Below are positions 41,040-62,998 of a stretch of 64,000 nt of DNA, piece after piece (position 1 is the stretch's first letter; each line of letters starts with the position of its first letter). The notes beneath the pieces were generated by a model. It was not told where the DNA came from, did not search any database, and was given only the letters and a program-made list of their open reading frames with translations. The stretch comes from Argyresthia goedartella (Eukaryota > Arthropoda > Insecta > Lepidoptera > Argyresthiidae): the NCBI GenBank assembly GCA_949825045.1, contig OX463810.1, forward strand, positions 31,878,201-31,942,200. Reading direction: 5' to 3'. A program made the translations under genes and the position numbers.

Positions 41040-41054
41040 GTCGGGGTTTCGAAA

Positions 41055-41450
41055 TTCTGAATTACCGAAAGTTTAACGTCTTTGTCAAAAAATATTCAAA
41101 AAATTTCAGGAAAGACTGCCACAAAGCCAAGGGCCTACATCTTAACAATAAAATCAAAGCTTCTGGCGACAAAATTAAAATTACATGGAACATTATTAAA
41201 AAAGAGACAGGCAAGGTTAGGTCTAGTGAATCTAGTTTTAATTTAAAAGTTAACGATAAATTACTCTCATCAAACGAGGACGTTGCTAACGCATTTGAAA
41301 AGTTCTTCAGTACCATACCAATAATAACAACAGAAGCACTACCATCCTCTTCTGAAAAGTCTTTAGATTACTTGGTTGAAAATGTGCCCCAAAACAAGGA
41401 TGGCTTTAACTTCAAACCAATAGGCTCTATAACTATAGTTAAAACATTAT
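41055..41450 (+). pseudogene. Jockey A ORF2, first piece
   Basis: The frame YRKFNVFVKKYSKNFRKDCH, then WNIIKKETGKVRSSESSFNL and FKPIGSITIVKTL is the region between endonuclease and RT of Jockey-type ORF2. The endonuclease is missing (5' truncation). It is cut at the codon for Leu in VKTL by the SINE. The second and third pieces are at 61606-62028 and 62470-62812. Confidence 0.75.
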
Positions 41451-41505
41451 GTATGTGTATCGTTGTCTAGTACCCAAGATATAGGGAATCCTAGTTTGGG
41501 GCTAG
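41451..41505 (+). mobile_element. Truncated SINE, left half
   Basis: gtatgtgtatcgttgtctag through cctagtttggggctag matches the 3' half of the SINE at 40080. It stops exactly where Jockey B starts. The other half is at 61568-61605. Confidence 0.85.
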
Positions 41506-41629
41506 TTTTTTTTTTTCTTCGTTCGGTCATCGCAGACAGCAGACGTGTTGTTGCGTTCAGCATATTAGTCAAATTATAAATCAAAATTTAGTTCATACTC
41601 TGGTTACACACAAAGAGAGAAAAGTTGCA

Positions 41630-41705
41630 TCCTCGGTGTCATCGGCTGAGAATCGAACCCGGGCCTTCTGCGCTGCAGGCAGGTACGCTCCGTTCGAACC
41701 AACCA
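41630..41705 (-). repeat. tRNA-like segment in the Jockey B leader
   Basis: The reverse complement contains gcagcgcagaaggcccgggttcgattctcag split here for length: gcagcgcagaag then cccgggttcgattc, a clear box B. No complete cloverleaf could be drawn. Probably a SINE or tRNA-derived fragment. Confidence 0.4.
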
Positions 41706-41904
41706 GAACGAGACTTCGAGCGTCGAAACATATCACCACTAGCCTACGAACGTAATCCTTACAACATCAAGTTCGCACTAAGGTCAGCAGCGGTTCTCAA
41801 CCATCGGCGCAAATATGAACACCACCATAACCTTTCAAAGCTGTCAACAATGCAAAGGCAATATCACAGACGGTTCAGCTCAATGTTCGAAATGCAATGG
41901 ATTA

Positions 41905-44331
41905 GAGTTTGACCAGCGAGTGGCTGCACAAAAAAAAAGCGGCAAATTCAAAATATCTTTAGCTGGTAACACGAAGCATAGTGCAAAAAAAGTAATTTGA
42001 TACTTGGTCATCATCATCTGTGGCCGCTATAACAACAAATATTATAAATAGAAAATTAAATAAGTAAAAATAAATAAATAAATAAGTATATAAAAAAAAA
42101 CCCATACAAAAAATCGAATTTCTTCGTTGTTTTTTGCGATAGTGTCTAAACCGTTATAACTAGTCAGTTTAAATTTTCACAGATGATGTATTTCAAGTGA
42201 CTGAATTTCTTTTTTTGGTAACTTGTATATATGTATAGTATAACACGACAATTACTTTTTTAGCATAAGACAAGAAATTATCCCTTGCCCTAACAAAGTT
42301 TTACTAGTAATCAGAATAAAGTGACATATGTATATATATTATTTCCACTTGGAAATGTCATCTAAAGGGTAAAGTGCTACACATACCTGTAGATACATTT
42401 AATGGAGCTGAATGTAGTAAGGTGAAAGAAAACAATAATATTTTAAACTAATTTTAATATTATATTTTCTATAATCATAAATTTATAAAGAAGGTACAGA
42501 TTTATTCAAGATTCATAGTCAAAATCAGATTCCAGAAATTCAACGCCTGAAAGAGAACTATCAGTATCACTTTCATTATCACTTTCACGAACTTCTATAA
42601 TGAATGGAGCCAGTTCGTTATCCAGAATGTTGTCCTTAGACTTGTATTGTTGTTCAACATTGATTACATGGTCTGTACATTTTTTCCAATCTTCTGCTGT
42701 AATCATTGAAAAACATTCCCGGATCAAATTTTCAGTTTCTGAACCATGTAACCCCACATTTCTGCTAGCTACTTTTCGCTTTGCGAGGCTCCATATGAGC
42801 TCAATAGCATTTAGGTCACAATGATATGGAGGCAATTTAAGGACCTCATGCCCATGCTGCTTCAATATCTCCTCTGCTGCATATACAGGACCAATTTTGT
42901 TTTCCTGAACAAGGCACATCAATTCCTCTTTTTTATAACAGTCTTCATATGGTATATTATTTTCCCTTAGCCATTTTTGAATATCGGCCTTTAAGCTGTG
43001 AATGGTTGGAGGCTTATTTATTTGTGTTACATGGTAACTTGCATTGTCCATTACAATTACACTAGGCTCGGTCAAATTTGGGATCAACATTTCTCGTAAC
43101 CACTTTAAGAAATTTACACTGTTCATATCGTCATGATAATCAGCTGCTTTGGATTTTGTGCTAAAAACAAGCAAAGCGTTGGGCACAAATCCTTGCTCCG
43201 AACCAGCATGCACTATGATATGCCTTTTACCCGAAGAAATTTTTTCAACTACACCGGAAGTCGAAGGCCCTTGCCATGACTTCTTCGGTCTATAATTTTG
43301 GTGGACATATGTCTCATCAAGATACACAATCATTTTTCCTTCTTGTCGTTTTTTATGTATAGTTCTTAGAAATCTTTGTCTCCATCCAGATATTTCAAAA
43401 TTTTCCATGAGAATGGAGCGTTCTTCTTTATTTTTTTTAAACTGAAATCCATTCCGATGCAGTATTTTCCTCAGTGTTTCACGACATCCTGAGAATCCTA
43501 TAGATTCTTTCAATTCCGCATGTAAGGTTCTTAGAGTAGGTACCTGCTTTTTGACACAATAAAATTCGTTAATTTTATTACGGATGGCTGTCACATCAAA
43601 ATTATCTAAATTTGACACAGTTGGTGGGCGGGGACGTTTTTTTCCTGGCGTATTCCATTCGCCTTGGTTAATAGAGCCCTCTTTTTTAATTGTGCGTAAC
43701 GTTCGAATGCTTACACCTGAAAAAAAAAACAAGTGTTAACTCAAGGAAATCGACACATTAAAATATTAAGAAATCGAGATGTGTAAATATAGTTTATTAT
43801 TTATATTACCTGTCATAGTGGACACTTTCTCCAAATAACCTGATTCTGATTCGTTATTATCAATAACCTTCTTTAGTTCTCTTGCTAGCTTTTCAATAGT
43901 TTGTTTGACATTTTCGTCATCCACGCCAGCTGTAATAAAAATTATTCATAAGTAATACAAACACTAACGTTCCTACTTCGTGAATTAAAGATTTATATTC
44001 AGGGAAGTATCAACATTGTTTGACAATAACTTACCGGTCGCCTGAATGATTTCGTCCAACATTCGTTTCTTTTTCAGTAATCTCTCATTTTCGTCGCGTC
44101 TAACCTGATTATAGCTAGAGATTATCGTAAATAACATGCTTCTAACACTGCTTTTGATCGGTTTAGCCATTATAATACGATGTAATCTTCCGTAACAAAT
44201 GCACTGAGACGCTATTCTAGGTTATGTGCGAACAGAGGTTGACAATTAGTTTGACACTTTTGACAGATAAAATTGTTGCCATATATAGAATTCTGTAAAA
44301 ATGCTTGTGCAGCGACTCGCTGGTCAAACTC
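41905..44331. mobile_element. Tc1/mariner-type DNA transposon, 2427 bp
   Basis: Terminal inverted repeats start gagtttgaccagcgag at the left and, in reverse complement, at the right (about 23 of 24 bases match). TA is present on both sides (41903-41904, 44332-44333), the standard duplication of this superfamily. Excision restores ORF1 of Jockey B. Encodes one intact spliced transposase on the minus strand. Confidence 0.92.
42506..44170 (-). CDS. Tc1/mariner-type transposase, intact, three exons, wide D-E spacing
   Basis: Exons are 44035-44170 (ATG at 44170), 43810-43929 and 42506-43716, with GTAAGT/GTAATA donors and AG acceptors. Phases agree and the product is 488 aa with no stop. The N-terminus is basic and helical; SIRTLRTIKKEG and TLRTLHAELKESIGFSGC look like the paired helix-turn-helix. 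The DDE core shows VYLDETYVHQN, VIVMDNASYH and LPPYHCDLNAIELIW. The second Asp and the Glu are separated by 81 residues by my count, far more than the 34-41 of ordinary mariners, due to an insert (PTIHSLKADIQKWLRENN onward). The C-terminus is acidic and Ser-rich. It would excise and reinsert the element at TA. The element may be active. Confidence 0.88.
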
Positions 44332-45804
44332 TATTCCACTATCCTACCTGCACTAACATAAACAAGGCTGCATGGGGAAAACTGGGTCCAGACCGGCAAG
44401 TTTCCTGGAAATGCTCCACGTGCAAAACAGCTAAGTCCAATCAGATTATCACCAACTCAGCTCCCCCTACCATTCCGAAACGTAACAAACAGAATGACCA
44501 CAACCAAGCGAAGACCGTCACTGCACCCGGTCCCGCAACAGATTTGTGCCAAGGAAGCGATTTGACCCAACTTAATTAAATCGAACTGATGTTTGCCACT
44601 CTAACACAACTACCCAAGCAACTAGACGACATGCGTTCGGAACTAAATGCACTCACCGCCAAAATCAACATTCAATTTATTGAGGACCTGACCAAACGTC
44701 TCGATGAAATCGAAAACAAACTCTGCATCGTAGACGGACTAAAGTCAGATGTCTCAGTCCTGAAATCAAAGTTGGACAACCAAGAAAAAAATACGAAAGC
44801 CGAGCTCAAAAAGCGCGATAAGATCATTAGTGAACTCCAAACCACTACAAATCTCTTGGAAAAAGAGCACAAGCGATCCCAACAGCAGTATAGGCTATTT
44901 AACATCGAACTCATCGGCGTCCCTGAAACACCTAATGAAGTTCTACCACTGGTACTGATGAACATAGCCCATAAGTTGAACTCAGACCTCAAGCTGGAAG
45001 ACATAGAGTTTATAACCCGAGTCCAACCAATGAAAAGCAACCAAGACAAGCCCAAAACGATTATTGCAAAACTGAAGAGCAGACTGGTCAAGCACACATT
45101 AATCGATAAATACTTACAAACGCAAATCCCGCGAAAATAAAGGGCTTACCTCATGCGTCCTTGGATTCGAGGGAGACTCACGAAAAATATTCGTGAACGA
45201 ACACCTCACAATTGCAAACAAAATACTTCTTAATGACTGTCGAGAGAAGGCCAAGATACTTGGAGTGAAATTCGTATGGGTAAAAAACTGTTGCATTTAT
45301 GCCAGGAAAGACATCAAACACCCGCTTGTGCCAATATCCACTGTAGAAGTGTTAAGTATGTGGGAAATGACAACACAACGTTCTGCAGTGTGACCGTTTT
45401 TGGTATTTTCAGTACTAAACTAGTATATTTGAGGCACTGCAGAATGATATTAGTATAATTTTAGTACATTGCCAAATTTTAGTAGAATATTGGTAGAATT
45501 GAAACTTTTTTGGTATTTCTTTGGTACTTTTCAACTGGCAACACTAAAAACGAACAATTTACTCAACCTCATAGTTATTTATCTGTGGTCAAGCTGTATT
45601 TTTTTAATTGTCTGCCTGCCTTGTCTCTCATTGCGTTTTTCGTATGTACTATCCTTCTCTTTTAACATAGTGAGTGAATGGACGTTTGAGAAGCTTCCGG
45701 GTATTCCCCGATGGCGTGATGGCCGTGTGCATCGTTGGTATGTTAACTTGTGGGTTTGCTATGCTAGTTCGGTTTCAGTTCGTAGCGGGATTTTTTTTCT
45801 AAAG

Positions 45805-48069
45805 ATGAAGCGCAGATACGAGCAGAAATACAGGGCAGACTGGGAACAAAACCCTGAATTCTCTGCTTGGTTGAGTAAAGATAAAAACAGTGAGAACGCT
45901 TTATGTAAAGCTTGTGGAGTGACGTTTTCAAGTAGAATTGCAACAATAAAGTCTCATGCCGAGTCGGAAAAACATCGAAAGAAAACTATACATTACAGTG
46001 GACAGTCGAAGGTAAATAAGTTAACTGAGAAAGTAATTTATTACATAACCCCTCGTCTGTGACAGTGGTCGTTTTGGGCAGATAATTGAAATGTAATTGT
46101 TATAAAAGTACCCACTGACGAAAGGATAAGGAAGGTTGCACACACGGTCATACACCGCCGCCGCCCCGTCCCGGCGGCCCCGCCGCGCGCCGCCGTGTGC
46201 ATTCTGCAACCTCCCTATCCCTTAGTCTGCATTTACCCTACTTATTTTTCCTTTCTCTTATTTATTTTTCTGTTTCAGATTGATAAAATATTTCAAAGCA
46301 AAGGCCCAGTTTCCCAGCAGATAAGAAAAGCGGAGCTCCTCTTTTGCGCTGCTCTAGCCGAACATAATATTTCGTTTCGCGCCATGGATCATCTAAGCGA
46401 ATTATTTGGTAAAATGTTTCATGATTCAGAAATCGCAAAAGGTTTTTCCAGTAAACGTACTAAATCAGCACAATTAACTTATGATGTAATGGCACCAGCA
46501 TTTGAAAAGCAATTATTGACAGACATAAAAAAAACTTCAGAATTGTCAGGTAATGGTCCAGTATTTTCCTTGATCATAGATGAAAGCACAGACATAACGA
46601 CGGAAAAACTACTTGCCGTAGCGGTTAAATTTTATTGCGTCAATGATGATAAACTCAAAACTAAATTTTTATGTTCTGTCAAGCTTTCAGGCGAAACAGC
46701 GGATGATATTTTTGATGCACTGTGTAAAAAATTAATTGATTTAAATCTAAATATCAAAGATATCATAGGTTTTGCAGCTGATACAACGAATGTAATGTTT
46801 GGTAGAAATAATAGTGTTGTTTCAAAAATTAAAAATGTTAATCCGAAATGCATTTTCGTAAAATGTGTGTGCCATTCTTGTGCTTTAGCTGTAAGTTACG
46901 CATGTAAAAAACTTCCTAGAGCCCTAGATCAAGTTGTCAAAGAAACACATAATTATTTTGGCCACAGTTCGAAACGTCAAAGACAATTTGTAGAGTTTCA
47001 AGAATTTACAGGCTCAGAACAGCATAACATTTTACGCCACTACGAGATACGTTGGTTATCTCTACATGCATGTGTCAACCGCATAGTAGAGCAATGGGAT
47101 GCACTAAGGTTATACTTTCAGCAAGAGCATTTGGTTGAGCACAATCACTCGGCATTGTTTTTACATGAAAGTTTTGAAAATAAGCAAATAAAGCTGTATT
47201 TTCTATTCTTAGATTACATTTTACCGGTTGTGAACAAACTAAATGTAATTTACCAAGGAAATTCATGTGCTGTTCACACTATTTATAGAGATATGTCTGA
47301 TATGTTTAAAACTATACTTAGCTGTTACATGAAAAGTAGCTATGTCCGAGCTACGAGTATTGAAGACGTTGACCCAAGCAGTACAGTGAATTTCGTAGAA
47401 TTAAATGACTTGTATTTGGGCGTTCAAGTTTCCAGAGAAATTATGCTGCTACGAAATCAATCACATCAGGTTGCAGTTATCAAAGATTTCCTACAAAGGT
47501 GCCAAAGTTTTTTGATTGAATTATGTACTCAACTAAAATGCAGACTGCCAATAAATGAAAGGATATTTTTCGAAATCCGTTTCATGGATCCACAAATTGC
47601 TGTATACGAAAACTTTTTCTCCATTCTAAATGTTACAGAAAAGTTCCCTAACATTGTTACAAGTGATACCCAAAAACAATTAATTGACGAAGAATATCGT
47701 CAAATTAAATATGATCAAGAAGTACAAAATTTGATGTGTGGTACTAGTACCAGTGCACTTAATTGTGAACAGTTTTGGAGTAAGTTAGGCAATATTGTTG
47801 ACAGTCTGAAAAATCCTAAATATAACAATTTGATAAATTTTGTTAAATGTATAATGTGTTTGCCTATTTCTAATGCTCACTGTGAACGAATTTTTTCCCA
47901 AGTGAATATGGTCAAAACGAAATACAGAAATAGGTTTTTATCTGATCATATTTCTTCCATATTACACGTGAAACAAGGTTTGACTGATGGCTGTATCTCA
48001 TTTGAACCCTCGACCGAGATGCTTAAATGTAACAAATTAAGCAATACTGATTATACTATTGATTTATGA
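45805..48069 (+). CDS. hAT transposase with BED-type zinc finger, intact, two exons
   Basis: Exon 1 is 45805-46011, exon 2 is 46279-48069; GTAAAT donor and TTTCAG acceptor, phase 0, 665 aa. The ATG at 45805 begins MKRRYEQKYRADWEQNPEFS. Exon 1 encodes a BED-like finger (ALCKACGVTFSSR then SHAESEKHRKK). Exon 2 shows the RNase H-like core: FSLIIDESTDITTEKLLAVA (first Asp), IIGFAADTTNVMFG, FVKCVCHSCALAVSYACKKL (insertion domain start), YEIRWLSLHACVNRIVEQWD, and near the end MCLPISNAHCERIFSQVNMV with the catalytic Glu and dimerisation region. No stop or frameshift was found, so the element may be active or recently so. Confidence 0.9.
46122..46223. repeat. GC-rich foldback in the hAT intron
   Basis: aaggataaggaaggttgca (46122-46140) faces tgcaacctccctatccctt (46205-46223), 16 of 19 bases paired. 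The centre is very GC-rich (ccgccgccgccccgtcccgg) and pairs further. About 102 bp in an otherwise AT-rich intron; perhaps a tiny MITE. Confidence 0.7.
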
Positions 48070-48587
48070 TAAATATATGTGTGTTTTATTTAGAATATTT
48101 CTCAAAATAGCCTATGAAAATGTTAGTATAATTTTGGTATAATTGATTTTTCCTCTTAGTATTTTTTAGTACTGGCAGCACATTTTGTTGGTATGTTTCT
48201 AAATTTCAAAACGGTCACACTGACGTTCTGCTATAAGGACTCAGTAACCACTGTTTAATAGAGAGAGAGGTTCGAGTGCGCTGACGCAGTCTAGCGCACT
48301 CGATAGTTATAGCTACATACGTAACACTCCTCCGGACTTAGATAAGATACTACAAAGAATGTAATAATATTTACGTGTAACTAGATGCATACATGTGAAT
48401 ATATGATACTAGCTAGGTAACTATTGCTTATAATTAACCTTAGGACGGTCTCTTAAAATTATGCTTAAACCTATATCTCTAGGTCGTATTTGACCAGACG
48501 TTTGCTCATTAGTTCCTTCTCCCCCAAAAAGTTGCGTGCTTGCACATTATGTGGTGTCAGATGTGTCATCTGACAGCGTGTGAGTCA

Positions 48588-51500
48588 CCGGTGCGCTGGT
48601 CGATGCAGTTGAAGCGGCGCGGCGGTGGCAGCGGGGGTGAGGCTTGGATGTGCAGGCGGAGGGGGTGGCGGCAGAGCTGCTGGCGACGACGAGGAGGTTG
48701 ACAAAGGCCCGTCCTGGTGAGACGACGGTGACCAGTCGTCAAAACTGTCGTCGTTGTCCAGCTCCAAGCCATCATATTGGCCTTTGTATTTTATTATTTG
48801 ATTTTTGTGTCTTTTTAAACTTATTTCTAAGCTTGGTATATAAACTAAATATATGCTTTGTCATTGCTTCTCCTTTATAATAGCCTTGATCCATGATGTG
48901 GATGTTTTATGGTAATTACATACTAATACAGTTTCATTTGGCGCAAAGCTTACATTTCTTGTACCTTTATATGTATTACACTGTGAGCACTGTTTGATTC
49001 GGACAATTTCTTGCAATGTATCTCTCGATATTGACGATGATGATTGGTGGTGTGGATTTAATAAATCTAATCTAGACTTTAATGACCTGCCCAGCATTAT
49101 TTGTGCCGGTGATAACTCTGTCGTTGAGTGTTTTGAGTTTCTGTAGTCTAATAGGAAATCCCTGAGTTTAAATTGCATATCCTTTTTTGTTGATGATGAA
49201 GCCATGATACTTTTAATACCTTTTTTAATTATTTTGACGTATATTTCAGCCTGTCCATTGCTTGATGGAGAATAGGTGGGCGTTGTAACATACGTGATAC
49301 CGTTCTCTTTACAAAATGACTTAAATTCTGATGACACAAAAGCGGTACCATTGTCAGATACTATTGTTTCCATTAATCCAAAATGTGATATAAGTTCGTG
49401 TAACTTGTCTATCACTGCTGTTGAGGTACAACAACTCATGTCAAAACATTCCACCCATTTGGAGTAAGCATCCACAATGACTAAGTACGTTTTTGCATTT
49501 TAGGGCCGAGGAAGTCAATGTGAATGCGTTGCCATGGCTTGTCTGGCAACGGCCAGGGTGTGAGGGGTACCCGGGGTGGCGCCGACCTAAGCGTTTGGCA
49601 TATTGAGCAGTCTGCTATGAAAACTTCAATCTCCTTGTCTATATTGGGCCACCAAAATCGACCCCTGGCTTCACATTTGGTTTTAATTATTCCTAAATGA
49701 GACCTATGTAGTTCACTTAATACCGTATGTCTCAACTGATTTGGAATAATCAATTTATGTCCTCTCATGAGGCAGCCGTTTTCCAGAGATATTTCATATC
49801 TGCAATTGTAATATGGCTTTAAAGTTTGGTCACAGTGTTCGGCCAGCCAAACATAACAAAGTTGCAAACTTGTTTCATAAGTATATCTTTGTTTGTTTGC
49901 TCACGCACATCATCGAGTTGTAACGGTAAATTATTTGATGTTATGTGATTTATGAACTGCGCCCTATCACGGTCAGCTGATGCATTGGCCCCTCCCACTC
50001 CCACTGAGTTTGTATCTGAATCGGTTACTCCCGCTCTGCTAAAGAAATCTGCGCAGTTTTTTTCGCTTCGAACGTATTCTATTGTGAAGTTGTAAGCAGA
50101 CAGAAATATCGCGTATCTTTGTAATCTATTTGCTGACACCTCTGGGACACCTTTGTTCGGACTGAAAATTGACAGTAAGGGTTTATGATCCGTGCGAAGG
50201 ATGAAGGGCACATCTCGTCCATACAAGTACTGATGGTAGCGTTTAACTCCAAAAATTATAGCCGTAGCTTCCTTTTGAATCTGGCTGTAATTTTTTTCAG
50301 CCGAAGAAAGGACACGCGATGCATATGAAATCGGTCTTTCCCTGTCATTCTCTAACTGAGACAAAACTGCCCCGAGACCTGACGGTGATGCATCTACAGT
50401 TAAAATGAGAGTGGCATTCTGATCAAAATGAGTCAGCACTCTATCAGATGCCATCTCTTTCTTAATTTCGATAAAAGCATCTTCATGTTCTTGAGACCAA
50501 TTCCATTTTGCGTTTTTGAGCAATAGACTGTAAAACGGGGCCAATACGGTGGACGCAGACGGCACAAAACTCCTGTAATAATTTACTAAGCCAAGAAATG
50601 ATTGTAATTGAGTTACATTTTCCGGATTTTTGGCATTTACAATAGCATTTACCTTTTCTGGCGACTTATGCAAGCCATTTTTGTCGATTATAAAACCCAA
50701 ATAAGATATCGACTCTTGGAAAAAACTGCATTTTTCCTTCCTTAAAACAAGTCCTGCCTCACGAAATTTTTCAAGTACTGTTTGGAGACGATTTAAATGT
50801 TCTTGTCTATTACAACCTGTTATAAAGACATCATCCTGATAAGTCAATACTCCTTCTATACCCGTCAAAGTATTTTCTATTGATCTTTGAAAGATAGCAC
50901 TAGCACTAGACAGCCCGTATATCAATCGCGTGTACTGGAATAGCCCTTTGTGAGTGTTAATGCATGTGAGTGGTTGTGCATCCTCAGATAACAAAAGCTG
51001 CATGCAGGCATTAGCCGAGTGACTGGTATATCCACACACGCTGCAATGGATGTTGCCCCGGTTTTGTTGCTGTCTTGTAGCAATACGGTTCACGTTTGCA
51101 GCTTCCTCTTGAAGTGGGTGCATATATCCTCTTGTCGTCCCTGGAGTCACAAGTCGTGCTGCAGCGCGGGCGCAGCGAAGTCCCTGGGCGATATCTAGTG
51201 CTTTTGCCAAAGTGAGGGTAGATGCATCTTCCGTGAATAACTTGTCGCGGGCAGGTCCCGGCTCCATGCCGAGCACGAATCGGTCTCGGAGCGTCTCATC
51301 CAATGATGTGAATTTGCAATGGGTAGCTAAGCTCCTAACGCGAGCAGCCCACTCATTTAATTCTTCACCAAGCGTCTGGAGTGCAGCATGGAACATATGA
51401 CGCTCACCGATTATACACTTCCGCGGGACAAAGTGGTCATCCAGCAATTTCAAAACTTCTTTGTAAGTTAGCGAACTGATGTCCTTTGGATGTGAAAGGT

Positions 51501-51690
51501 CACGTACTAGCTAGTACGTAACCTCAGCGAGTGCACTGAGCAGTATAGCACGTCGTCTTACTTGTGATTTTTCATCATCGAGCAACTCATTTGCCATGCA
51601 CCACTGTTGAAAACGTTCTTTGAACACTAACCAGTCCTGTGATTCATGATTGAATATTGGTAAAGATCCAATTAGCGACGAGTTTGACAT
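48588..51690 (-). pseudogene. gag-pol of gypsy-type element, protease and RT start deleted
   Basis: ATG at 51690 (MSNSSLIGSLPIFNHESQDW). gag has one TAG at 51511-51513 inside a near-perfect palindrome, then continues in frame to a zinc knuckle CSVCGYTSHSANAC. The frame passes directly from the knuckle into RT palm sequence (GLFQYTRLIYGLSSASAIFQ, YQDD), so protease and the first RT motifs are lost by an in-frame deletion. RNase H follows (LILTVDASPSGLGAVL, RPISYASRVLS, LRTDHKPLLSIF). A shift near 49850 leads to the integrase zinc finger (HRSHLGIIKTK, CSICQ) and another near 49490 to the core (DAYSKWVECF, VSDNGTAFVSS, GQAEIYVKIIKKG). The C-terminal tail with a Pro/Ser-rich end reaches about 48588. 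Movement would need proteins from other copies. Confidence 0.88.
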
Positions 51691-51742
51691 AGTGGCGGTT
51701 TATTTGCACGCTAAAGTATTTATTTTTGATCCGAGTCTACAC

Positions 51743-52397: not shown

Positions 52398-53969
52398 GTG
52401 AATAACTTAAGTTTTTACTATCAAGACGTTCGTGGTTTGAGAAGCAAACTACATAATTTCTATCAGAGTATAGCTATTAACGACTATGCCTTAATAATTG
52501 CAGTGGAGAGCTGGTTGCGTGAGGGCATCCTAGATTCAGAAATATGTAACGATAGGTATGATGTGTTTCGCAGTGACCGTCAACATAAGTCGTTGGGTGG
52601 TGGTATTTTGGTATTAGTCAAAAAACATCTCCACGCCTCGGAGCGCCCAGACTTGTGTTATGGGTCTGTTGATAGTATGTGGATAACAATACCTCGTAAC
52701 GCATTAAACTGCCACGGAGGCGTTGACTCGCAAAGTACATGCGATTTGCACATAGGAACCGTGTATGTACCCCCAATTTCCTGTGACGAAAATGCGCCAA
52801 AATTAATAAGTGATTTTATCAACTCGATGACGTGTGCTACCACAAAAACGCCTTCTGATATGTTTTTATTGGCAGGTGATATTAATTCTCATTTCGTATC
52901 GTGGGATCGTTCCCCATATGGGTATACTATCCACAGAGAAACTAAATCAGACTTGATAGAGGCCACGACGGAGTTTCTGAATATGACCGAACTGATGGGA
53001 CTTGCTCAATACAACTTCACGTGTAATTCCTGCGGCAACACACTCGACCTAATTTTTTCAAACCTAATTCTTGATTGGCGTGAGTGTGTCCAGCCACTTA
53101 GCAAAATAGACGTATTCCATCCACCACTTGAATTATTAATTAATGAGCTAAGCTCGCGTCCATTACGCACCCAACCTCGCGTATTGCGGAAATTTCACAA
53201 AGGCGAATACAAATTATTAAACGAAGAGTTGTCACAATATAACTGGCATCAATTACTACACACTGGCTCAGTCGATGATGCAGTTGATTGTTTTTACAAG
53301 ATTCTGGAAGTACTAATGTCTAAACATATACCCACTATCAAGACTTCGTCCCGATATCATTATCCAAAGTGGTACACCCCCGCATGATTAGCCTCAATTC
53401 ATCAATAGCCTCAAAGAAAAACACAGATTGCATAACTTATGGAAAAAATATAGAAACCCGCTAGACTACTCCGCTTTTTCATTAACACGTTCCTGTGAAC
53501 AACGACATTGTACGTCACTTCTTGGTAGTCACGTTGTGGCACACCGTACTACGACGCCCAACAAACATCGTCATTTTTATGCACAGCGTTATAGTACGGC
53601 GTCTTGCCATAGTACCGACTAAGAGTTCTGTTTCTGTGCTATGGCACATCAAATTCTCAAAACTCTAGTGCTACACCGCATCTTAATTTTGAACTTATTT
53701 GAATTCTCCCCACCCTGGAACAATGTACCTACTTTGTTTACGCACAACGTCGCTGTACGTCGTGTGTCGGTAAGTTGTCCTTGGATTCACTCAGCCTGTG
53801 CGCATCGCAAGAGAAGCGCGTGTGTTTCTTCCTGTCGTCAGGTGTTCGCATCGAATATCAAATGAAATCGTAAGTAGTGTTCTGTTAAATATAAATTACA
53901 TACATTATATAAAACGTGTTACCGTGAAAGTATTTTTAAACAATCTTTTTGTATTCTACGTCTTTTTAG

Positions 53970-56588
53970 ATGGATAAAAACAAGCAAAAGCAGCCGAAAT
54001 CTTCTATGACAATCTTCGAGTCCTCTTCTTCATCCCGGGGAACAACTCCAGACCCTTTCGAAGACGACGGAGAACATGGCTCGGATTGCGATTATGACCC
54101 ACTTTATGAAGAAGAAGATGACAGCTCATGTAAGTTGAGTTTATCCCAACGCAAACTGCATAAAAAGTCATCAACGGTTGGAAAAAAGTTTACACCTGCC
54201 AACTTTAAACCTGACAGTGGATCCTCATCAGATACCACATCTGAGGATTCCCTTGATAACACTGATGATTCAGACTGTTCAAGTTCTCAAAGCATTTTTG
54301 ACACTCAAAAAAGAAAGAAATGCAGTACAAGCAAACAACCCATGAGTAAAAAAAATAAGACAAGTCTAAAACAATCAGTTTGTGATCTAGATAGCATTGC
54401 CAATATGTCGATAGACTCTGAAGTGTTGCGAAAAAATGTAGGAGACGGTATTTTGGGGGATACCTTTTCACTCGACAACCTTGAAGATATAGGATACCAA
54501 TCGCCGATACTCTTGCATAACTCCAAAAGTAGGAAAGATAATGCTAAACCACAAGCCCAAGATCTAGATCCACAAGAAAATATGCAGCCGTCTTCGCTAT
54601 CTTTAACTCCAACACCACATGCAAAGTTGTCTTCGCCATCCATACTCCTAATGCAACCTACGCCACATCTGCAATCGCCTATGCCATCCTCGGCCCTTAC
54701 ACAACAAGCCCAGGCGTCTTCGTCAACCGTGAACCCAACAACATACATGCAGCTGCATTCTCCATGCTCAAATCACGAACAGCTACCTGCACAATGCTTA
54801 GGCCCAACAGCGCAGTTGCCAAATACACTACCACTTTCTCCGTGCCTGGTCCAAGAACAGCCATCTTCGTTATCTTCCGACCTGACTTCGCACGTGCTGC
54901 CACTGCCACGACAACACTTGGAGCCTGCTGAACCCTGTATACCAAATCCTGAAAGTGGTAATGACGATGTTGGAGCATATCAACGACGCCCAAGAAACTT
55001 TAGTCCTCAGCCAACTCAAGAATGGGAAAACACAACTTCAGACATTCCTAACTTTGACTTCGATGAAGCGTCAACTGGTGTCCAGTTTGAGATCACACAA
55101 AATATGTCACCATTAGACATTTTTAACAAATTAATTCCACCTCACATTCTGGAGTACATTATTACAAAGACCAATGAATATGGAAAGGCATTGTGCTCCT
55201 CAAATGCGCGACGCACACGAAACAATCCACAGCGTCAATTAAAGTACAGAGACGTAGATAGTGACGAAATGAAGAAATTCTTGGGATTATGTTTACTCAT
55301 GGGACAAGTAAATATTCCTCAAAAACGAAAACTGTTTACATACAGTGAGGTTTTATATTATCATCCCATTTTCCAATACGCTATGTCAGCGCGCAGATTC
55401 GAACAAATACTAAGATGTTTGTGTGTATCCGAACTCAATTCAAAAGGAAAAGATAAAATCGTCTATTTCATTGATCTAATGACCAAGAATTTCAGGGACT
55501 GTTATATACCTGATAAAGAACTTTCTTTGGATGAATCGATGCTATTATTCAGAGGTCGCCTGTCATTCAGACAATATATAAAAAGCAAAAAAGCCAAGTG
55601 TGGGATCAAGTTTTATGAACTTACAACTTCGGATGGGTTTGTCCTTAACATAATCATGTACGCTGGAAAAGATCAAGATCATGAAAATACAAAAGGGAAA
55701 AAAACAGAAAAGATCGTAATGCGTCTCATGAAGCATTACTTATTCAAAGGCTATTGGCTTTTCATGGATAATTACTACAATTCTGTGGAACTTTCCCAAA
55801 AACTTGTCGATCTAAAGACTCATGTAACTGGAACCCTCAGAACCAATAGAAAAGGTAATCCCATAGAGATCACCAAGAAAAAACTGAAAAAAGGCCAGCA
55901 TGTATGGGTTCGTAAAAACAAGGTTTACGTATCTAAATGGGTTGACAAAAGACCTGTTTTAATGATTACGACGTTAAAACATCCCAAAATTACCAGTTTG
56001 ATTGACAGACATGGAAATGTACGTGAAAAGCCAGAAGAAGTAGATATTTATAATAAATATATGTCGGGAATTGATAGAAAAGACCAGATGGTCTCATATT
56101 ATTCTTCCCCTAGAAAATCACTGCGCTGGTATAAGAAAGTGTTTTTCCATATATTTGACCTTTCCGTGTGGAATTATTTTCACATTTACAGAAAGCATTT
56201 GAAAAGCGGTGATAAACGTTATGATTTTCTCAGTTTTAGAGAAAGTTTGATACGATCACTTTTACACATATCACCTGATATGAAGCCCAATATGTTGATG
56301 CCACTGTAGAACAAACACGACAATAGAATGAGAGAATGGCCCGGTACATTGCCGTCTACTCAGACGCCGTCTACGAGTACTGGCAACATTGAAAATAATA
56401 CTATTAAAGGCCACTGGCCTGAAAAAATTCCACTAAAAGCTGGAACAAAGAAAACCAAAAATTACATGAAATGTAAAATGTGTGCTAAAAAGAAATTGAG
56501 AAGAGAGACAGGCCTTCGGTGCAAGGGCTGTCCCGAAAAACCAGCACTTTGTGCAATTTGCTTTGAAGAGTGGCATATTGAAGACTGA
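53970..56588 (+). pseudogene. piggyBac transposase, one stop before the Cys-rich domain
   Basis: The ATG at 53970 sits directly after a TCTTTTTAG acceptor, so a 5' UTR intron (from a GTAAGTAG donor near 53870) is likely. The first 380 residues are acidic and then Pro/Ser/Gln-rich, an unusually long tail. The DDE_Tnp_1_7 core follows: ELSLDESMLLFRG (first Asp), GYWLFMDNYYNSVELSQ (second Asp), YMSGIDRKDQM (third Asp group), SLRWYKKVFFHIFDLSVWNY. A TAG at 56307 ends 779 codons. The same frame continues without another stop to 56588 and encodes the zinc-binding end (CKMCAKKKLRRETGLRCKGC, ALCAICFEEWH). That tail normally binds the transposon ends, so this copy is impaired unless the stop is read through. 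Confidence 0.88.
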
Positions 56589-57172
56589 TTTTTGTTGTTT
56601 AATTTTATCTAGATAACTGCCTGATGCCGTGCTATTAATTAAGTCTATTTACTTAATTGTTACTACTATTCCAGAGATATTTAATTCCAGTGAGGCATTT
56701 ATAGCCATAAGTATAGTCTGGGTCTATAAGTACCCAATATAATTTTCCTTGTTAAGATGACAGTTCCTACTACTCTATTATTTTTAGAAGTTTATGTAAA
56801 GTAATGAACCAAAACTACAAAAAGTGATTTTTATTACATAATTTAGTTCAACTGAGTGATTGCTATTGTATCCAGATACATTTGATTATAATAATTGTGA
56901 ATCTTATCTGCAGTCACTCCATGATTATTATGGTTAATAAAGAAGTGACTTTTTAGTTTAAATTTTTCCATTGTTAGAACGCTATTGTTGCTTTGTTGTG
57001 AACAACGTACCCTATTTGTAAAAGTTATCTAACTAAGGCAGATTTACAAAGTAGTGTTTTGAATCTGATCTCTGAGACTGAATTAATGATTATAAAGAAA
57101 ATAAATGTATGTACAAAGAACTAAAAAAAAATCGTTTTATTTAATCTAATTAGGTACCTCCCTGCTTTTTTA
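56589..57172 (+). other. piggyBac 3' untranslated and subterminal region
   Basis: AT-rich, no frame of note. AATAAA-like signals occur near 56935-56942 (ttaataaagaag) and 57099 (aaaataaatg). Confidence 0.5.
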
Positions 57173-57545
57173 CGTCGACGTTAAACGTTGTTAGCGGCTA
57201 TGTATATTTTTGACCACGCTGTACAGGACAGGCGTCTTTATCCGTCTACGTTATTATGCGTTGTTAGAAGCTATGTATATTTTTGTATTAACTGCACAGC
57301 ACAGGCGTCTATATACGTCGACGTAATTAAACGGTGTTAGCAGCTATGTATATTTTTGTCTATGCTGTACAGCACAAGCGTCTATATACGTCGACGTTTT
57401 TATACGTTGTTAGCGGCTGTGTATATTTTTGTCTACGCTGGACAGCACAGGCGTCTATATACGTCTACGTTATTATACGGTGTTAGCGGTTGCGTACCTT
57501 TATGTCTATCCTGTACAGCACAGGCGTCTTTATACGTCGACGCCT
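57173..57545 (+). repeat. 73-bp tandem repeat in the piggyBac right end
   Basis: About five units start at 57173, 57243, 57316, 57389, 57462 and a partial one at 57535. Each has cgt(c/t)(g/t)acgt, gttagcggctatgtatattt and cagcacaggcgtct. Units are 70-73 bp and about 85-90% alike by eye. Confidence 0.9.
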
Positions 57546-57765
57546 TAGGACGTCAGTGCACTATATCGTAGCTCTCATTTTGCTAGCTATTTGCACAACG
57601 TCACTAGACGCCGATCCCATTTGTATGAGAACAATATGTGCATCGCCGCATAGCACTTCGATATTGACATGTTAACGTGAACGTGTTAATAAGATCCAGA
57701 ACTAAAGCACTATAAATCGAATGTCTTGAGCAATACCTGTTGCGATGTCAAAATTCTATAAAAAA

Positions 57766-58186
57766 CCGGTCAAGTGCGAGTCTAAATCGCGCACGAAGGG
57801 TTCCGTACCACCGTTCAATGGAAGCGATGGTGTGGAGTGAATAGTTTGGATTTTACACAGCAAAATATTGTTTACAAAGTTATTGGTGCGGTTAATTTCA
57901 CACTCCATGTACGTAACCAGGTGCATCCATAAGTTTGTATGTGGTATTGAAAGAATTGTTGTATGGGAGCCCCCTTAAATATTTCTTTTATCCTGTTTTT
58001 TAGTATTTGTTGTTATAGCGGCAACAGAAATACATAATATGTGAAAATTTCAACTCTCTAGCTAGCTAGGTTCTTGAGATACAGCCTGGTGACAGACGGA
58101 CGGACGGACGGACGGACGGACGGACGGACGGACAGCGAAGTCTTAGTAATAGGGTTCCGTTCTTACCCGTTGGGTACGGAACCCTA
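57766..58186 (+). repeat. GGGTTCCG-type repeat with (GGAC)n run, inside Jockey B
   Basis: From ggtcaagtgcgagtctaaat to gggtacggaaccctaaaaa; near-identical to the reverse complement of 35518-35935. It contains about nine GGAC units at 58093-58131. Flanking aaaaa on both sides may be the target duplication. Removing it rejoins the Jockey B frame. Confidence 0.88.
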
Positions 58187-58876
58187 AAAAGGACCCTTAA
58201 GAATTTTGGAAATATATTAAGTCTAAGCGGAACAATAATTGGATATCCGTGTAACATGCAATATCAGGGCAAAACACTTTCAAAAGGAGAAGACATTTGC
58301 AACTCATTCAACGAGTTCTTCCAAAGTGTATTTATTACTCCTTCCTCGTCTCATAAATTTGATGCAGGGTCAGATCAAAACACTGTATCTGATAATTTGT
58401 GTCATATTCAAGTAACTGATGCGGGGTTATTGAAGTTATTTAATGGACTTGATCACCGAAAAAGTGCCGGTACCGATGGAATACCAGCCATTTTCATACA
58501 AAAGTGCAAGCGTGGACTTCTTCTACCCATTAAAATTATTTATCAACGATCCTTGAATGAGGGTGTTTTTCCCAAACGTTGGAAAGAAGCACAAATTGTA
58601 CCTATTCACAAGAAAGGTGTCAAAAATTATATAACGAATTATAGGCCCATATCAAAATTCAATATTCTCGGTAAAATGTTTGAAAAAATTGTATACCACT
58701 ATGTATATGCAAATACTATCAAGAGCATACCTACGGCCCAGCATGGCTTTATTAAATCCAGATCAGTCGAAACCAACTTACTTCTTTTGACCGAGTATAT
58801 AACATCTAATATGAGCACAAAGGCTCAAATTGATGTTATATACACGGACTTTGAGAAGGCATTCGATCGAGTAGAC

Positions 58877-58908
58877 CACGATAACTTACTAGTTAGTAAG
58901 TTATCGTG
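58877..58908. repeat. Perfect 15-bp hairpin inside Jockey B RT
   Basis: cacgataacttacta (58877-58891) and tagtaagttatcgtg (58894-58908) around gt. The encoded DNLLVSKLSCVTKLRMLGI looks like DNLLVTKLRMLGI with extra residues, so the right arm is probably an inserted inverted copy. Confidence 0.8.
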
Positions 58909-59759
58909 CGTAACTAAGCTGCGTATGTTGGGTATAAACGGGAACCTACTTAGGTGGGTTGAATCGTACATAAAGAATAGGTGTCAGGCGGTGGTACTAG
59001 GGGGATATCGATCAAATTATATAACAGTGACATCTGGCGTTCCTCAAGGATCGCATTTAGGACCCTTTATTTTATAATATATACCTCTTCGACATACCTC
59101 AATGTTTCAAAAATTCTAATTATTTATTATACGCCGACGACAAGAAGATATTTAGACGAATAGAAACTATAGATGATTGCCACTTACTTCAATCTGATCT
59201 CGACAATCTTACAAAATACTATTCTGAAAATCGAATTAGTGTAAATACAAGTAAATGCCAGGTGATTTCATTTTCACGAAAACATACTACAATACAATAT
59301 AACTATATGATTAGTAAGGAAGCTACACCAAGAACGAATATAGTACGTGATTTGGGAATAATGCTTGACCATAAACTTACGTTTAATGAACATGTCGAAC
59401 ATATCACCAGCAAGGCATTCAAGTCATTGGGTTTTGTTATTCGGAGTAGTCTCCCATTCAAGGACGTACACTGCTTCAAAGCTCTTTATTATGCGTATGT
59501 CAGAAGTGTTGTAGAGTTTGGTGCCGTTGTCTAGCGACCATTCTACGCCCAATATCGCACCCAAAAAGAGCGTATCCAGTGTCTGTTCGTGAAGCACCTC
59601 AACTATAAAGCTAGGTTTCTATCTAACGACTATGCTGAATCTTGCTTACGTCACAAGGTAATGTCATTAGAGGACAGGCGCGATCTCATCGATATGATGT
59701 TTTTGTTCGACCTATTAAATTGTAAATTTGAATGCGGTGACTTACTCAAATACCAAATA

Positions 59760-61022
59760 CCAAATGTCTTTATTACTGTAGATATTTACATATACTTAGC
59801 AATCGTCATTTTTTGCCACTTCTCTACATTGGACCACTGTGGGAGAAGGAGGGCGTAGAAACTCCCACAGATTGATTTTTAGATCTCTTTTTAAAAATTG
59901 CTTATGCTTGCTTGCTTACTAATACAAAATATAATATTTAGTCATTATCATAATTAATAAGCAGGAATAAATAATTACAAAATTATTAACAGCAAGGTCT
60001 GTGTTGAGCCAGATTGACCCCATACAGACCCATCATTTAAGTAATCTTGAACATTGTAATATCCCTTTTTCGACAAAGTCGCTTTAACATGGATTTTAAA
60101 TTGCTCAAATGGCAATGTCAAGATCTCCAGAGGTATCTTGTTGTAGTAGAGAATGCATTGACCCTTGAAAGAATTGCTAACCTTCGCGAGTCTAAACCGG
60201 GGCGCAAGTAGTCTGTGATTATTTCTTAGGTTAACATTACAGCTATCGCTAAGTTTGGGAAATTTTGTAAGGTTCTTGCGTACGTACATTATATTTTCGT
60301 AAATAAATTGACTAGCTACAGTTAGTATGTAAATTTCTTTAAAAAGCTGTCTTAAGGAGTCTGTGCGTTTTAAATTATAAATTGCTCGAATAGCTCTTTT
60401 CTGTAAAATAAAAATAGTTTGAATATCCGCTGCTTTTCCCCTCAACAAGATACCATAGGACATGACACTATGAAAGTAACTAAAATATACTAGCCTAGAT
60501 GTAGCCACATCCGTGTTTTGTCTGATGTTCCTAACAGCGTAAGCTGCAGAACTTCATTTACCAGCCAAATTTTCTATGTGGGGTCCCCACTGCAATTTGT
60601 TATCAATGGTTATTCCAAGAAACTTCGTGTCATTTACTAATTCTAACGTATTGCTGTCCAACACGAAACTGGTTCCAACTTGCCTGACATTTGGAAGTGA
60701 GAATTTGATACATTTGGTTTTACCAGCATTTAACAATAAATTGTTAACTGTGAACCAATTCAAGGTTAAAGATAATACTCTATTGACATCATCAAAATCT
60801 TCTTTTTGTCTTTCAATTTTGAAGACCAGTGAAGTGTCATCAGCAAACAACACTATGCTAGTCAATTTCTCCACCATAAAAGGCAGATCGTTAATATATA
60901 CCAGGAATAAGAAAGGGCCTAATATGGAACCTTGTGGAACGCCAATTTTTACCCCCGATCCATCAGATTTAACGCCGTTGACTTCTGCCTTTTGAATTAT
61001 ATTGCTTAGGTATGATCTTAGT
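59760..61022 (-). pseudogene. Jockey C: 5'-truncated Jockey-clade retroposon inside Jockey B
   Basis: Minus-strand RT from about 61018: VKIGVPQGSILGPFLFLVYI, VLFADDTSLVFK, NWFTVNNLLLNAGKTKCIKF, FLGITIDNKLQWGPHI. After a short shift at about 60555, SYGILLRGKAADIQTIFILQ, MYVRKNLTKFPKLSDSCN and KATLSKKGYYNVQDYLNDG follow, with a 3' region down to 59760. The family also has the copy at 23490-24520. The RT palm FADD is intact. The 5' truncation lies inside RT, at a 13-bp hairpin (61006-61035). Lesions in this copy are few. Confidence 0.85.
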
Positions 61023-61035
61023 AGATCATACCTAA
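61006..61035. repeat. 13-bp hairpin at the 5' junction of Jockey C
   Basis: ttaggtatgatct (61006-61018) and agatcatacctaa (61023-61035), loop tagt. One arm lies in Jockey C, the other at the start of the resumed Jockey B sequence. Confidence 0.75.
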
Positions 61036-61567
61036 ACATGTAAGGTTCAATATACCCAACAAACGAACCCGTCGTACACCACTTTTGTACGTGCCCAAAT
61101 TCGGAACAAACTACGCTCAAAACCCCCCATTTATTCGCTTACCCACACTTTACAATAAAAATTTCTCATCTATTGATTTGTTTGACCTATCACGTAACAC
61201 ATTTAAAAGTAAAATTCTGTCTATCATTAACTTACATGAATGACTTTCTATTGTAGGTATATCGTTTATCGCTTATAAAGATACTTTACCCTACTCCATT
61301 CCTTCACCCGCCCGCCACCCTCCCCCCTCCTCCTACGTCATGAAATATGGACAAGTACATAATGAAAATAGTATTTACAATTTTAATTTAAATACCCACT
61401 CACTATAACTTAATAACATTAGACATAAGTAACTATCATTCTTTAAAACTGCTGTATTGAACTGTATATTTGAGTACCTTGTAATTGGCGTAATATCTTA
61501 TAATGTCACTTGAATATAATACTAAAAGCTGTAAGGTTTACCTAAATAAATAAATAAATAAATAAAT

Positions 61568-61605
61568 AGATCAATGTGTGTAAATGGTGTCCAAGGTATT
61601 ATTAT
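61568..61605 (+). mobile_element. Truncated SINE, right half
   Basis: tagatcaatgtgtgtaaatg then tgtccaaggtattatta is the 3' end of the SINE whose other half ends at 41505. A tttattt-type end follows, and attat is shared with the left flank at 41446-41450. Confidence 0.85.
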
Positions 61606-62028
61606 TTATTTATTATTTAAACTTCTTAACATGAAAAAGACTGAAGATTTATGGGGCATGTCGGTTAACGTGGTTAAATCAGTAATCGATGTGATTGCAC
61701 CATACATGGCAATCACATTCAATAGTTGTATAGCAAACGGAGTTTTTCCTGACCTCATGAAAATGTTTTTTATTACCATCATGAAAATGTTTAAATTAAT
61801 ACCACTTTTCAAATGCGGTAGTAAAGAAGACCCTGCCAACTTCAGACCTGTATCTGTATTGCCAGTGTTGAGCAAGGTGTTTGAAAAGGTCATATTGAGT
61901 CAACTACTCTCTCACTTCAATGCATCTGGGCTACTCCACAAAAAACAGTTCGGATTTACTAAAGGCAGATCAACAACAGACGCCGGAGTAGCGCTTGTAG
62001 AACACATTTATAGTGTTGTAGTTTGAGC
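61606..62028 (+). pseudogene. Jockey A ORF2, second piece (first RT motifs)
   Basis: LLNMKKTEDLWGMSVNVVKS, then LIPLFKCGSKEDPANFRPVS, KVFEKVILSQLLSHF and KKQFGFTKGRSTTDAGVALV are RT motifs 0-2 of a Jockey-clade element, preceded by a duplicated TIMKMF segment. The frame ends at the 19-bp hairpin 62010-62052. The palm with YADD is missing. Confidence 0.8.
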
Positions 62029-62052
62029 AAAAGGCTCAAACTACAACACTAT
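62010..62052. repeat. 19-bp perfect hairpin at the end of the Jockey A RT fragment
   Basis: atagtgttgtagtttgagc (62010-62028) and gctcaaactacaacactat (62034-62052), loop aaaag. The arm sequence is RT code, copied in inverted form. Confidence 0.85.
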
Positions 62053-62090
62053 GGTATCAAAGATAATATATATATGATATATATGTGGCA

Positions 62091-62412
62091 GGCAAATTGT
62101 AAGATTCCACATTTTACAAGGGGCGTCGTCCGTTTACAAACGCGCGCTGCTATGTAATATGCCGAAGGCAAATTGCAAATTGAAATTAAAATAGCAAATT
62201 CTAAGGGCAAAACGCTGCGGCAGCTTAGGTAAAGAGGGTGAGCGAAGCGAAGCCTCGTTTATCCTTCGTGTTAGGTTGAACATGTAAGAACAACAAAACA
62301 TACTAAAAACATAAAAGAGTGTCAATTTGCCTTCGGCATATTACATAGCAGCGCGCGTTTGTAAACGGACTACGCCGTTTGTAAAATGCTGAATCATACA
62401 AATTGCCTGCAA
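62091..62412. mobile_element. MITE-like element with about 90-bp inverted repeats
   Basis: The left arm from gcaggcaaattgtaagat to gccgaaggcaaattg matches the inverted right arm ending tacaaattgcctgc, including tccgtttacaaacgcgcgct. There is no coding capacity. The centre is about 130 bp. tata-rich sequence flanks both sides. The superfamily is not recognised. Confidence 0.8.
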
Positions 62413-62469
62413 CATATATACGAGAATATCATGCAATTAAGAAAAAACATAGCTTTATTTTAAATTGTA

Positions 62470-62815
62470 GGTGATAGCCATACAATTAACACTAGAAATC
62501 GAAATAGGTTAGCACTACCATTATATAGACTACGTAAAATAGGCACATCATTCATGGGGCACTGTATTCGCTTCTACAATAAAATACCACAGGAATCATT
62601 GATCCTTCCTGAAAAGAGGTTCAAAAACTATGTTAAAAATGAGCTGATAAGAATGTCCTATTATAGTATTAAGGAATACTTAGATGGCAAAACTGCATGG
62701 TCCATACCATCTCAGCGCACAGAAATACGACGAGGGGCGATGCATCAAGTCTATCACTCGCCGGCGAATTTTCTTAGACAGAAACCAGTACCTGTTCTAA
62801 AGTCACTTTTTTAAA
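62470..62815 (+). pseudogene. Jockey A ORF2, third piece (C-terminus)
   Basis: GTSFMGHCIRFYNKIPQESL, KRFKNYVKNELIRMSYYSIK and KEYLDGKTAWSIPSQR, with a TAA at 62812, are the usual C-terminal end of lepidopteran Jockey elements. The 3' region that follows ends in ttgattctgattctgatt near 62998. About 250-300 codons of RT are missing between this and the previous piece. Confidence 0.8.
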
Positions 62816-62998
62816 AAGAAGGTATGGGGGAGTTTCTTGCCGTTTCTTCTTAACCCCGAGGCCCACCTTCCGAAACGGTGTAGTCTTTTTTTATATAAAA
62901 AAATTTACTTGTAGTTATAAGTAAGTATAATTTTGACGTTGAATAAGATAATTTATTTATTTATATTCAATAAAAAATTGATTCTGATTCTGATTATG

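What the first reader, a model, noticed from the sequence alone, without database searches (positions are those of the whole stretch)
41040..62998. Six-level nest of transposons that can be unstacked by reading frames
Jockey A contains a SINE, the SINE contains Jockey B, Jockey B contains a gypsy LTR element, one LTR contains a hAT, and the hAT intron contains a foldback. Jockey B also took a mariner, a piggyBac, a GGGTTCCG repeat and Jockey C. TSDs are seen for the mariner (TA), LTR element (agaag), hAT (acgttctg) and piggyBac (TTAA). Taking each out rejoins the host frame (VKTL-FKLL, CNGL-FHYP, TVE-DMN, FSL-IRSR). The stack gives an order of activity: Jockey A, SINE, Jockey B, then the DNA transposons and LTR element, with the hAT after the LTR element.
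Basis: partly seen in the sequence, partly recalled or inferred. Interest (0 to 1): 0.85.

Follow-up and report, generated by a model that had tools for sequence, protein, structure and literature searches.

The report
Five-deep transposon nest in insect genome
A 22-kb stretch of an insect chromosome (probably a moth or butterfly) is a stack of jumping genes inserted into one another five deep; the stack is real and well preserved, but stacks like this are a known and ordinary feature of animal and plant genomes.

Summary
The nest is real and most of the unstacking is right. The window lies in a 1.1-Gb genome, so each junction could be compared with other copies of the host element. The SINE site in Jockey A is empty in 6 of 6 fetched copies; the Jockey B site in the SINE in 3 of 3. 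Jockey B's insert sites are empty in 13 (mariner-like), 18 (LTR), 20 (piggyBac), 20 (GGGTTCCG) and 20 (Jockey C) of 20 fetched loci; in the rest the alignment does not reach the site. With inserts removed, the residue gives one uninterrupted alignment in 17 of 20 loci (10 nearly full-length). The four reported target duplications are exact.

Three corrections. (1) The sixth level fails: the hAT-intron palindrome is present in 22 other hAT copies, so the nest is five deep. (2) An unlisted, strong foldback lies in Jockey A (about 62068-62409) where 0.6-0.7 kb of Jockey A is missing; that join is not clean. (3) The stack orders these insertions, not family activity: 8 of 20 fetched Jockey B copies look far younger than this one.

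Divergences agree broadly with the order. The nested-insertion method has already been used on two lepidopterans. Low to modest interest.

The parts
41070..41448 (+). Jockey A (level 1), 5' piece of a 5'-truncated non-LTR retrotransposon. Three of 6 fetched copies align from 41070; the true left edge is at or a little left of this
   Evidence: Adjacent to 61615-62015 in 6 of 6 fetched copies
41449..41505 (+). SINE-like short repeat (level 2), left half, 5'-truncated; TSD ATT
   Evidence: Empty site in Jockey A copies; matches L014, L015 and window 25-kb and 40-kb copies
41506..41904 (+). Jockey B (level 3), block 1 (5' end)
41905..44331 (-). IS630-Tc1-mariner-type DNA transposon (level 4); TIR GAGTTTGACCAGCGAGT; TSD TA; transposase ORF 42506-43735 (-), DDE_3; 81 residues between second Asp and Glu
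   Evidence: Empty in 13 of 20 Jockey B loci, the other 7 do not reach the site; 30 other full-length copies at 97-100%; Pfam; spacing and TIR
44332..45349 (+). Jockey B block 2 (ORF1 region)
45350..51874 (-). Ty3/gypsy-type LTR element (level 4), antisense to Jockey B; TSD AGAAG; 132-bp LTRs at 51743-51874 and, split by the hAT, 45350-45385 + 48231-48326; internal ORFs with RT, RNase H and integrase domains; RT match starts at profile position 86 of 205 (deleted copy, inferred)
   Evidence: Empty in 18 of 20 loci; LTRs differ at 1 of 132 positions; Pfam
45386..48222 (+). hAT DNA transposon (level 5) inside the left LTR; TIR CAGTGTGACCGTTTT; TSD ACGTTCTG; two-exon transposase (exon borders read from sequence), intron about 46032-46279 with constitutive palindrome 46117-46227
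   Evidence: Pfam Dimer_Tnp_hAT
51875..53485 (+). Jockey B block 3 (endonuclease region)
53486..57685 (+). piggyBac element (level 4); TIR CACGTTC; TSD TTAA 53482-53485 / 57686-57689; transposase ORF 53970-56309; about five 73-nt tandem repeats 57171-57542
   Evidence: Empty in 20 of 20 loci; 10 other full-length copies running TTAA to TTAA at 98-99%; Pfam DDE_Tnp_1_7 1.8e-77; PDB piggyBat 3.5e-47; tandem repeats
57686..57765 (+). Jockey B block 4
57766..58185 (+). GGGTTCCG repeat (level 4), flanked by A5; another copy, 92% identical, at 35525-35914 (-)
   Evidence: Empty in 20 of 20 loci
58186..59750 (+). Jockey B block 5 (reverse transcriptase)
59751..61033 (-). Jockey C (level 4), 5'-truncated non-LTR element in antisense; TSD AAA; extra bases at its 5' junction pair with its own first bases
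   Evidence: Empty in 20 of 20 loci; RVT_1; relatives in L002, L005, L020 and window 23499-24506; junction
61034..61566 (+). Jockey B block 6, 3' end with (TAAA)n tail; TSD TAG
61567..61614 (+). SINE-like repeat, right half (begins with the TAG duplication)
61615..62067 (+). Jockey A, reverse transcriptase piece; around 62016-62033 a short stretch replaces about 75 bp of the element and copies nearby sequence in inverted form
62068..62409 (.). Foldback element in Jockey A (arms 62078-62175 and 62323-62420, 92% complementary) where 0.6-0.7 kb of Jockey A is missing; edges uncertain by about 10 bp; not in the finding
   Evidence: folding z -17 against 100 shuffles
62410..62990 (+). Jockey A 3' part and GATTCT-repeat tail; its end and TSD are inferred, not tested
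   Evidence: Copies match to 62832 at most, where the fetched loci end; tail read from sequence

Best explanation
Successive, independent transpositions built the nest. A 5'-truncated non-LTR element (Jockey A) landed first. A short SINE-like repeat then landed in it, and a full-length non-LTR element (Jockey B) landed in the SINE. Later a Tc1/mariner-type element, a gypsy-type LTR element, a piggyBac, a GGGTTCCG repeat and a truncated Jockey C each landed in Jockey B, in unknown order among themselves. A hAT then landed in the LTR element. Each arrived by its family's usual route. Shown: the nesting, the junctions, the empty sites and the TSDs. Inferred: the ages and the mechanisms of each insertion.
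For: Empty sites in uninterrupted copies of Jockey A, the SINE and Jockey B and an empty partner LTR. With inserts removed, Jockey B aligns in one piece in 17 of 20 loci, 10 of them from within its first 9 bases on; L011, L014 and L019 have a gap of their own. Other full-length copies of the mariner-like (30), hAT (19) and piggyBac (10) elements run the length of these inserts without a break. Divergence runs with the stack: private substitutions Jockey A 22/1003 (2.2%), Jockey B 81/4719 (1.7%); difference from the nearest copy seen: Jockey A 3.0% (6 copies), Jockey B 1.8% (20 copies), piggyBac about 0.9%, mariner-like about 0.16%, hAT about 0.13%; LTR pair 1 of 132.
Against: The A-versus-B difference in private substitutions is not significant (Fisher p 0.30). 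Nearest-copy differences also depend on how recently each family was active, so they are a weak clock. Jockey C, an inner element, is about 5.5% from its nearest relative among the loci held (L005), but no genome search for it was answered. TSDs of SINE, Jockey B and Jockey C are only 3 nt and could be partly chance. Jockey A is not restored by removing inserts: 0.6-0.7 kb is missing at the foldback. No sister-species or population empty site was tested. Genome searches for the LTR element, Jockey C and the foldback did not complete.
Confidence: 0.95

Rival explanations
1. The junctions are family-level composites: some elements normally carry the others, so fewer insertions happened here.
For: True for one claimed level: the hAT intron palindrome is in 22 other hAT rows. 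The mariner-like element, unbroken in 30 other full-length copies, also has interior bits similar to the GGGTTCCG repeat.
Against: For the other levels every fetched host copy that spans the site is uninterrupted.
Confidence: 0.03
2. Assembly artefact: unrelated contigs were joined through repeats.
For: Nests of high-copy repeats are where assemblies fail; I had no reads.
Against: The inserts sit at exact sites with target duplications and the host frames continue across them; misjoins do not make TSDs. No N in the window.
Confidence: 0.02
3. The locus is an insertion sink (for example a piRNA cluster or protected heterochromatin), which is why it gathered more insertions than its age predicts.
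For: Five direct insertions in this Jockey B against two of more than 100 bp (L014, L019) in 20 other loci that together carry 322 private substitutions to its 81; binomial P 0.005.
Against: The locus was picked because it is nested, so the P value is post hoc. The other copies were chosen by a near-unbroken 1.1-kb match, which disfavours interrupted ones. Seven of the 20 loci lose the left part of Jockey B, and an insertion there would look the same as a truncation; in L005 the break abuts a Jockey C relative. Inserts lie in both orientations. No small-RNA data.
Confidence: 0.12

Closest known systems
Nested TE clusters resolved by REANNOTATE (PMC2672092, passages) and TEnest (known only from those passages; its paper is not held)
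   Same: Host elements split by younger inserts; nesting level gives temporal order; a dated LTR element bounds ages in the stack
   Different: Those treat whole sequences automatically; this is one locus checked junction by junction against empty copies
TinT and interruption-matrix chronologies, including Heliconius melpomene and Bombyx mori (PMC4016481, passages) and TRANScendence (PMC5657132, passages)
   Same: Use of insert-in-insert events to order TE activity; already done in Lepidoptera
   Different: They pool many events per family pair; one stack cannot order families. PMC4016481 leaves DNA transposons out as less informative because they cut and paste
Sailor (DD82E) superfamily of IS630-Tc1-mariner (PMC8533490, passages)
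   Same: Long spacer in the catalytic domain (81 residues here); occurs in insects
   Different: TSD here is TA, Sailor mostly TATA; TIR here starts GAGTTTG, Sailor usually GT or CC

Membership tests
Nested TE insertion cluster | Uninterrupted host copies exist at each insertion site | tested here: met
   Levels 2 to 5: (for the hAT only the partner LTR was available)
Nested TE insertion cluster, sixth level (hAT intron foldback) | hAT copies of the same family without the foldback | tested here: not met
   22 other rows run through it unbroken, 37 rows do not cover it; 3 of 3 fetched full-length copies carry it; diverged L030 (94%) shows no recognisable intron, so an origin further back is open
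piggyBac | TTAA duplication, DDE_Tnp_1_7 transposase | tested here: met
hAT | 8-bp TSD, short TIR, hAT dimerisation domain | tested here: met
mariner (DD34D) | 34 residues between second and third catalytic residue | tested here: not met
   81 residues to the Glu; residues assigned by motif
Sailor (DD82E) | 82-83-residue spacer, TATA TSD, TIR starting GT or CC | tested here: inconclusive
   Spacer 81; TSD TA and TIR GAGTTTG do not fit (definitions from passages of PMC8533490); no tree made
Ty3/gypsy LTR retrotransposon | LTRs with TSD; RT, RNase H, integrase in gypsy order | tested here: met
   LTRs 1 of 132 different; domains on the minus strand in order RT, RNase H, H2C2, integrase core; copy looks deleted
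Jockey clade (A, B, C) | Placement in the Jockey clade by RT tree | not tested
SINE | RNA polymerase III-type 5' head and LINE-like tail | not tested
   5'-truncated here; no Rfam match at gathering score in 40000-64000

The most novel reading that the evidence does not exclude
The locus takes insertions faster than its age predicts, for instance because it is a piRNA-producing trap or an insertion-permissive heterochromatic pocket; the nest would then be the record of a functional insertion sink rather than of chance.
Probability: 0.1. Interest if true: 0.45.

Novelty: new member of a known kind. Interest (0 to 1): 0.2.

Why it matters
It is a clean worked example: nine nested elements (ten with the foldback) at one locus, with the main junctions checkable against uninterrupted copies in the same genome. 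It shows how to tell an insertion from a family-level composite (the hAT intron palindrome) and why one stack dates events and not families. It does not change what is known about transposons.

Tried and rejected
Rejected: the sixth level; a family-activity order from the stack; an assembly misjoin as the main account (TSDs and frames). Rfam scan of 40000-64000 at gathering scores: nothing. PDB sequence searches with the mariner-like and hAT transposases: no hits at E 0.001. Jockey A's own target duplication was not found by eye. The SINE's family name could not be tested. Genome searches for the Jockey A foldback, Jockey C and the LTR element never came back, so their copy numbers and, for the foldback, its family and borders stay unknown. 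Differences of piggyBac and mariner-like copies were taken from bit scores (gaps counted as mismatch-equivalents) because the fetch of 8 copies did not complete.

Papers: PMC4016481, PMC2672092, PMC5657132, PMC8533490: passages found by term search only; PMC2230558 is not held; others: search listings.

Full report
What the window is. It is positions 31,878,201-31,942,200 of contig 4 of a 1.11-Gb, 89-contig genome. The best named relatives of the hAT transposase are from Pieris rapae and Diatraea saccharalis, with beetles and Drosophila further down, and the named relatives of the piggyBac transposase are from Cydia, Pectinophora, Parnassius, Tuta and Hyposmocoma, so a lepidopteran is likely (inference).

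How the nest was tested. I compared it with other copies of each host element in the same genome. A genome search with a 1.1-kb piece of Jockey B gave 41 rows (40 of 83 candidates scored): the window itself and 39 other loci, one in two pieces. Twenty of these 39 were fetched, mostly the best matches. BLAST of the window against the 20 breaks at the predicted places: Jockey B consists of window blocks 41511-41904, 44332-45349, 51875-about 53490, 57686-57765, 58186-59750 and 61034-61568, which are adjacent in the copies. Flank-to-flank queries span an empty site in 13 of 20 loci for the mariner-like element, 18 of 20 for the LTR element and 20 of 20 each for piggyBac, the GGGTTCCG repeat and Jockey C. 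In the loci that do not count, the alignment to Jockey B starts right of the site. With the inserts removed, the 5,206-nt residue gives one uninterrupted alignment in 17 of 20 loci: in 10 it starts within the first 9 bases, in 7 it starts at 432-1744. L011 has its own deletion, L014 and L019 their own insertions.

Outer levels. A search with a Jockey A piece gave 41 rows, two of them the window itself (40 of 963 candidates scored). In 6 of 6 the two sides of the SINE are adjacent, with ATT duplicated in the window. The SINE-like repeat itself is uninterrupted in L014, in L015 and at window 25 kb; Jockey B splits it with TAG on both sides.

Inner levels. The LTR element is flanked by AGAAG; its LTRs are 132 bp and differ at 1 position (95% interval for the rate about 0.0002-0.04, computed on 131 sites). 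The hAT, 45386-48222, sits in one LTR with ACGTTCTG on both sides; the other LTR has that octamer once. On the minus strand the LTR element has RT, RNase H, H2C2 and integrase domains; the RT match starts at profile position 86 of 205, so it is probably a deleted copy. It was only described.

The sixth level fails. A genome search with the hAT gave 60 rows (40 of 114 candidates scored). Besides the window, 19 rows are full length (query about 7-2843) and three more cover query 738-848, the palindrome; all 22 pass through it without a break. The remaining 37 rows are fragments or diverged pieces that do not cover it. Three full-length copies were fetched; the 247-nt intron has 1, 1 and 2 mismatches. 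The palindrome is real (z -4.8 against 200 shuffles) but belongs to the family. An older capture by the hAT's ancestor is possible: the diverged L030 shows no recognisable intron.

A foldback that the finding does not list. In Jockey A, window 62068-62409 holds a strong foldback (arms of 98 nt, 92% complementary; z -17 against 100 shuffles). In the 6 fetched copies the same interval is 0.6-0.7 kb of Jockey A sequence. So either the foldback came with a deletion or one followed the other; removing it does not restore the host. Just left of it, about 75 bp of Jockey A are replaced by a short stretch that copies neighbouring sequence in inverted form. The search for its family did not complete.

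Ages. Private substitutions (sites where at least 80% of the other copies agree): Jockey B here 81 of 4,719, the 20 copies 2 to 63 each; Jockey A here 22 of 1,003, the 6 copies 2 to 59. The A-B difference is not significant (p 0.30). Difference from the nearest copy seen: Jockey A 3.0% (6 copies), Jockey B 1.8% (20 copies), and from bit scores piggyBac about 0.93%, mariner-like 0.16%, hAT 0.13%. Hosts are thus more diverged than these inserts, as the stack requires, though nearest-copy difference also reflects how lately a family was active. Jockey C does not fit or fail: its nearest relative among the loci held is 5.5% away, and its genome search did not complete. The hAT and mariner-like families look like recent bursts: 19 of 19 other full-length hAT copies are listed at 100% and 29 of 30 mariner-like ones at 99-100%, the last at 97%.

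What the stack does not say. Eight of the 20 Jockey B copies have only 2-5 private substitutions: the family of level 3 went on moving after this copy was buried. The stack therefore orders events at one locus, not the activity of families. It also gives no order among the five siblings inside Jockey B. Using insert-in-insert events to order families is an established method and has been applied to Heliconius melpomene and Bombyx mori (PMC4016481, passages); the general approach, and the statement that nesting is seen across eukaryotes, are in PMC2672092 (passages), and a family-level version in PMC5657132 (passages).

The 'mariner'. Its ends and TA duplication fit the IS630-Tc1-mariner group, and Pfam finds DDE_3. 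By motif the catalytic residues have 81 residues between the second Asp and the Glu, far from DD34D mariner and near Sailor, DD82E (PMC8533490, passages); but Sailor mostly duplicates TATA and has TIRs starting GT or CC, which is not met. I leave it as a Tc1/mariner-type element with a long spacer.

Load of insertions. This Jockey B has five direct insertions; the 20 others show two of more than 100 bp between them while carrying four times its private substitutions. Read naively that is P 0.005. But the locus was chosen for being nested and the copies for a near-unbroken stretch, and in seven loci the left part of Jockey B is missing, where an insertion could pass for a truncation. It is a lead, no more.

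Verdict. A true five-level nest of nine elements, ten with the foldback, well preserved, of a kind that is common and long described. Low to modest interest.

Noticed in passing
62068-62409: Strong foldback in Jockey A in place of 0.6-0.7 kb of its sequence; family unknown
   Followed up: partly
61751-61790 and 62016-62040; also L024, L025, L026: Jockey A copies carry short local duplications or templated insertions (24 nt and an inverted stretch here; 15, 9 and 12 nt in L024, L025, L026), a pattern like error-prone end joining (inference)
   Followed up: no
61014-61033: Jockey C's 5' junction has extra bases that form a hairpin with its own first bases, as if copied by snap-back
   Followed up: no
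42506-43735 (-): The 'mariner' transposase has an 81-residue Asp-Glu spacer, close to Sailor DD82E but with a TA duplication
   Followed up: partly
53970-56590: The piggyBac ORF stops at 56309; a Cys-rich stretch follows in another frame near 56420-56590 (read from sequence)
   Followed up: no
42017-42048, 42157-42194: Interior pieces of the mariner-like family resemble the GGGTTCCG repeat
   Followed up: no
L005:1274-2287: In Jockey B copy L005 a Jockey C relative lies directly against the left break of Jockey B, perhaps another insertion of C into B
   Followed up: no
63390-64000: A second LTR-type element with a gag-like ORF appears to begin just right of the nest (read from sequence; Pfam gave no match)
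   Followed up: no
20466-21250: A 391-nt unit repeated twice in tandem at 99%
   Followed up: no
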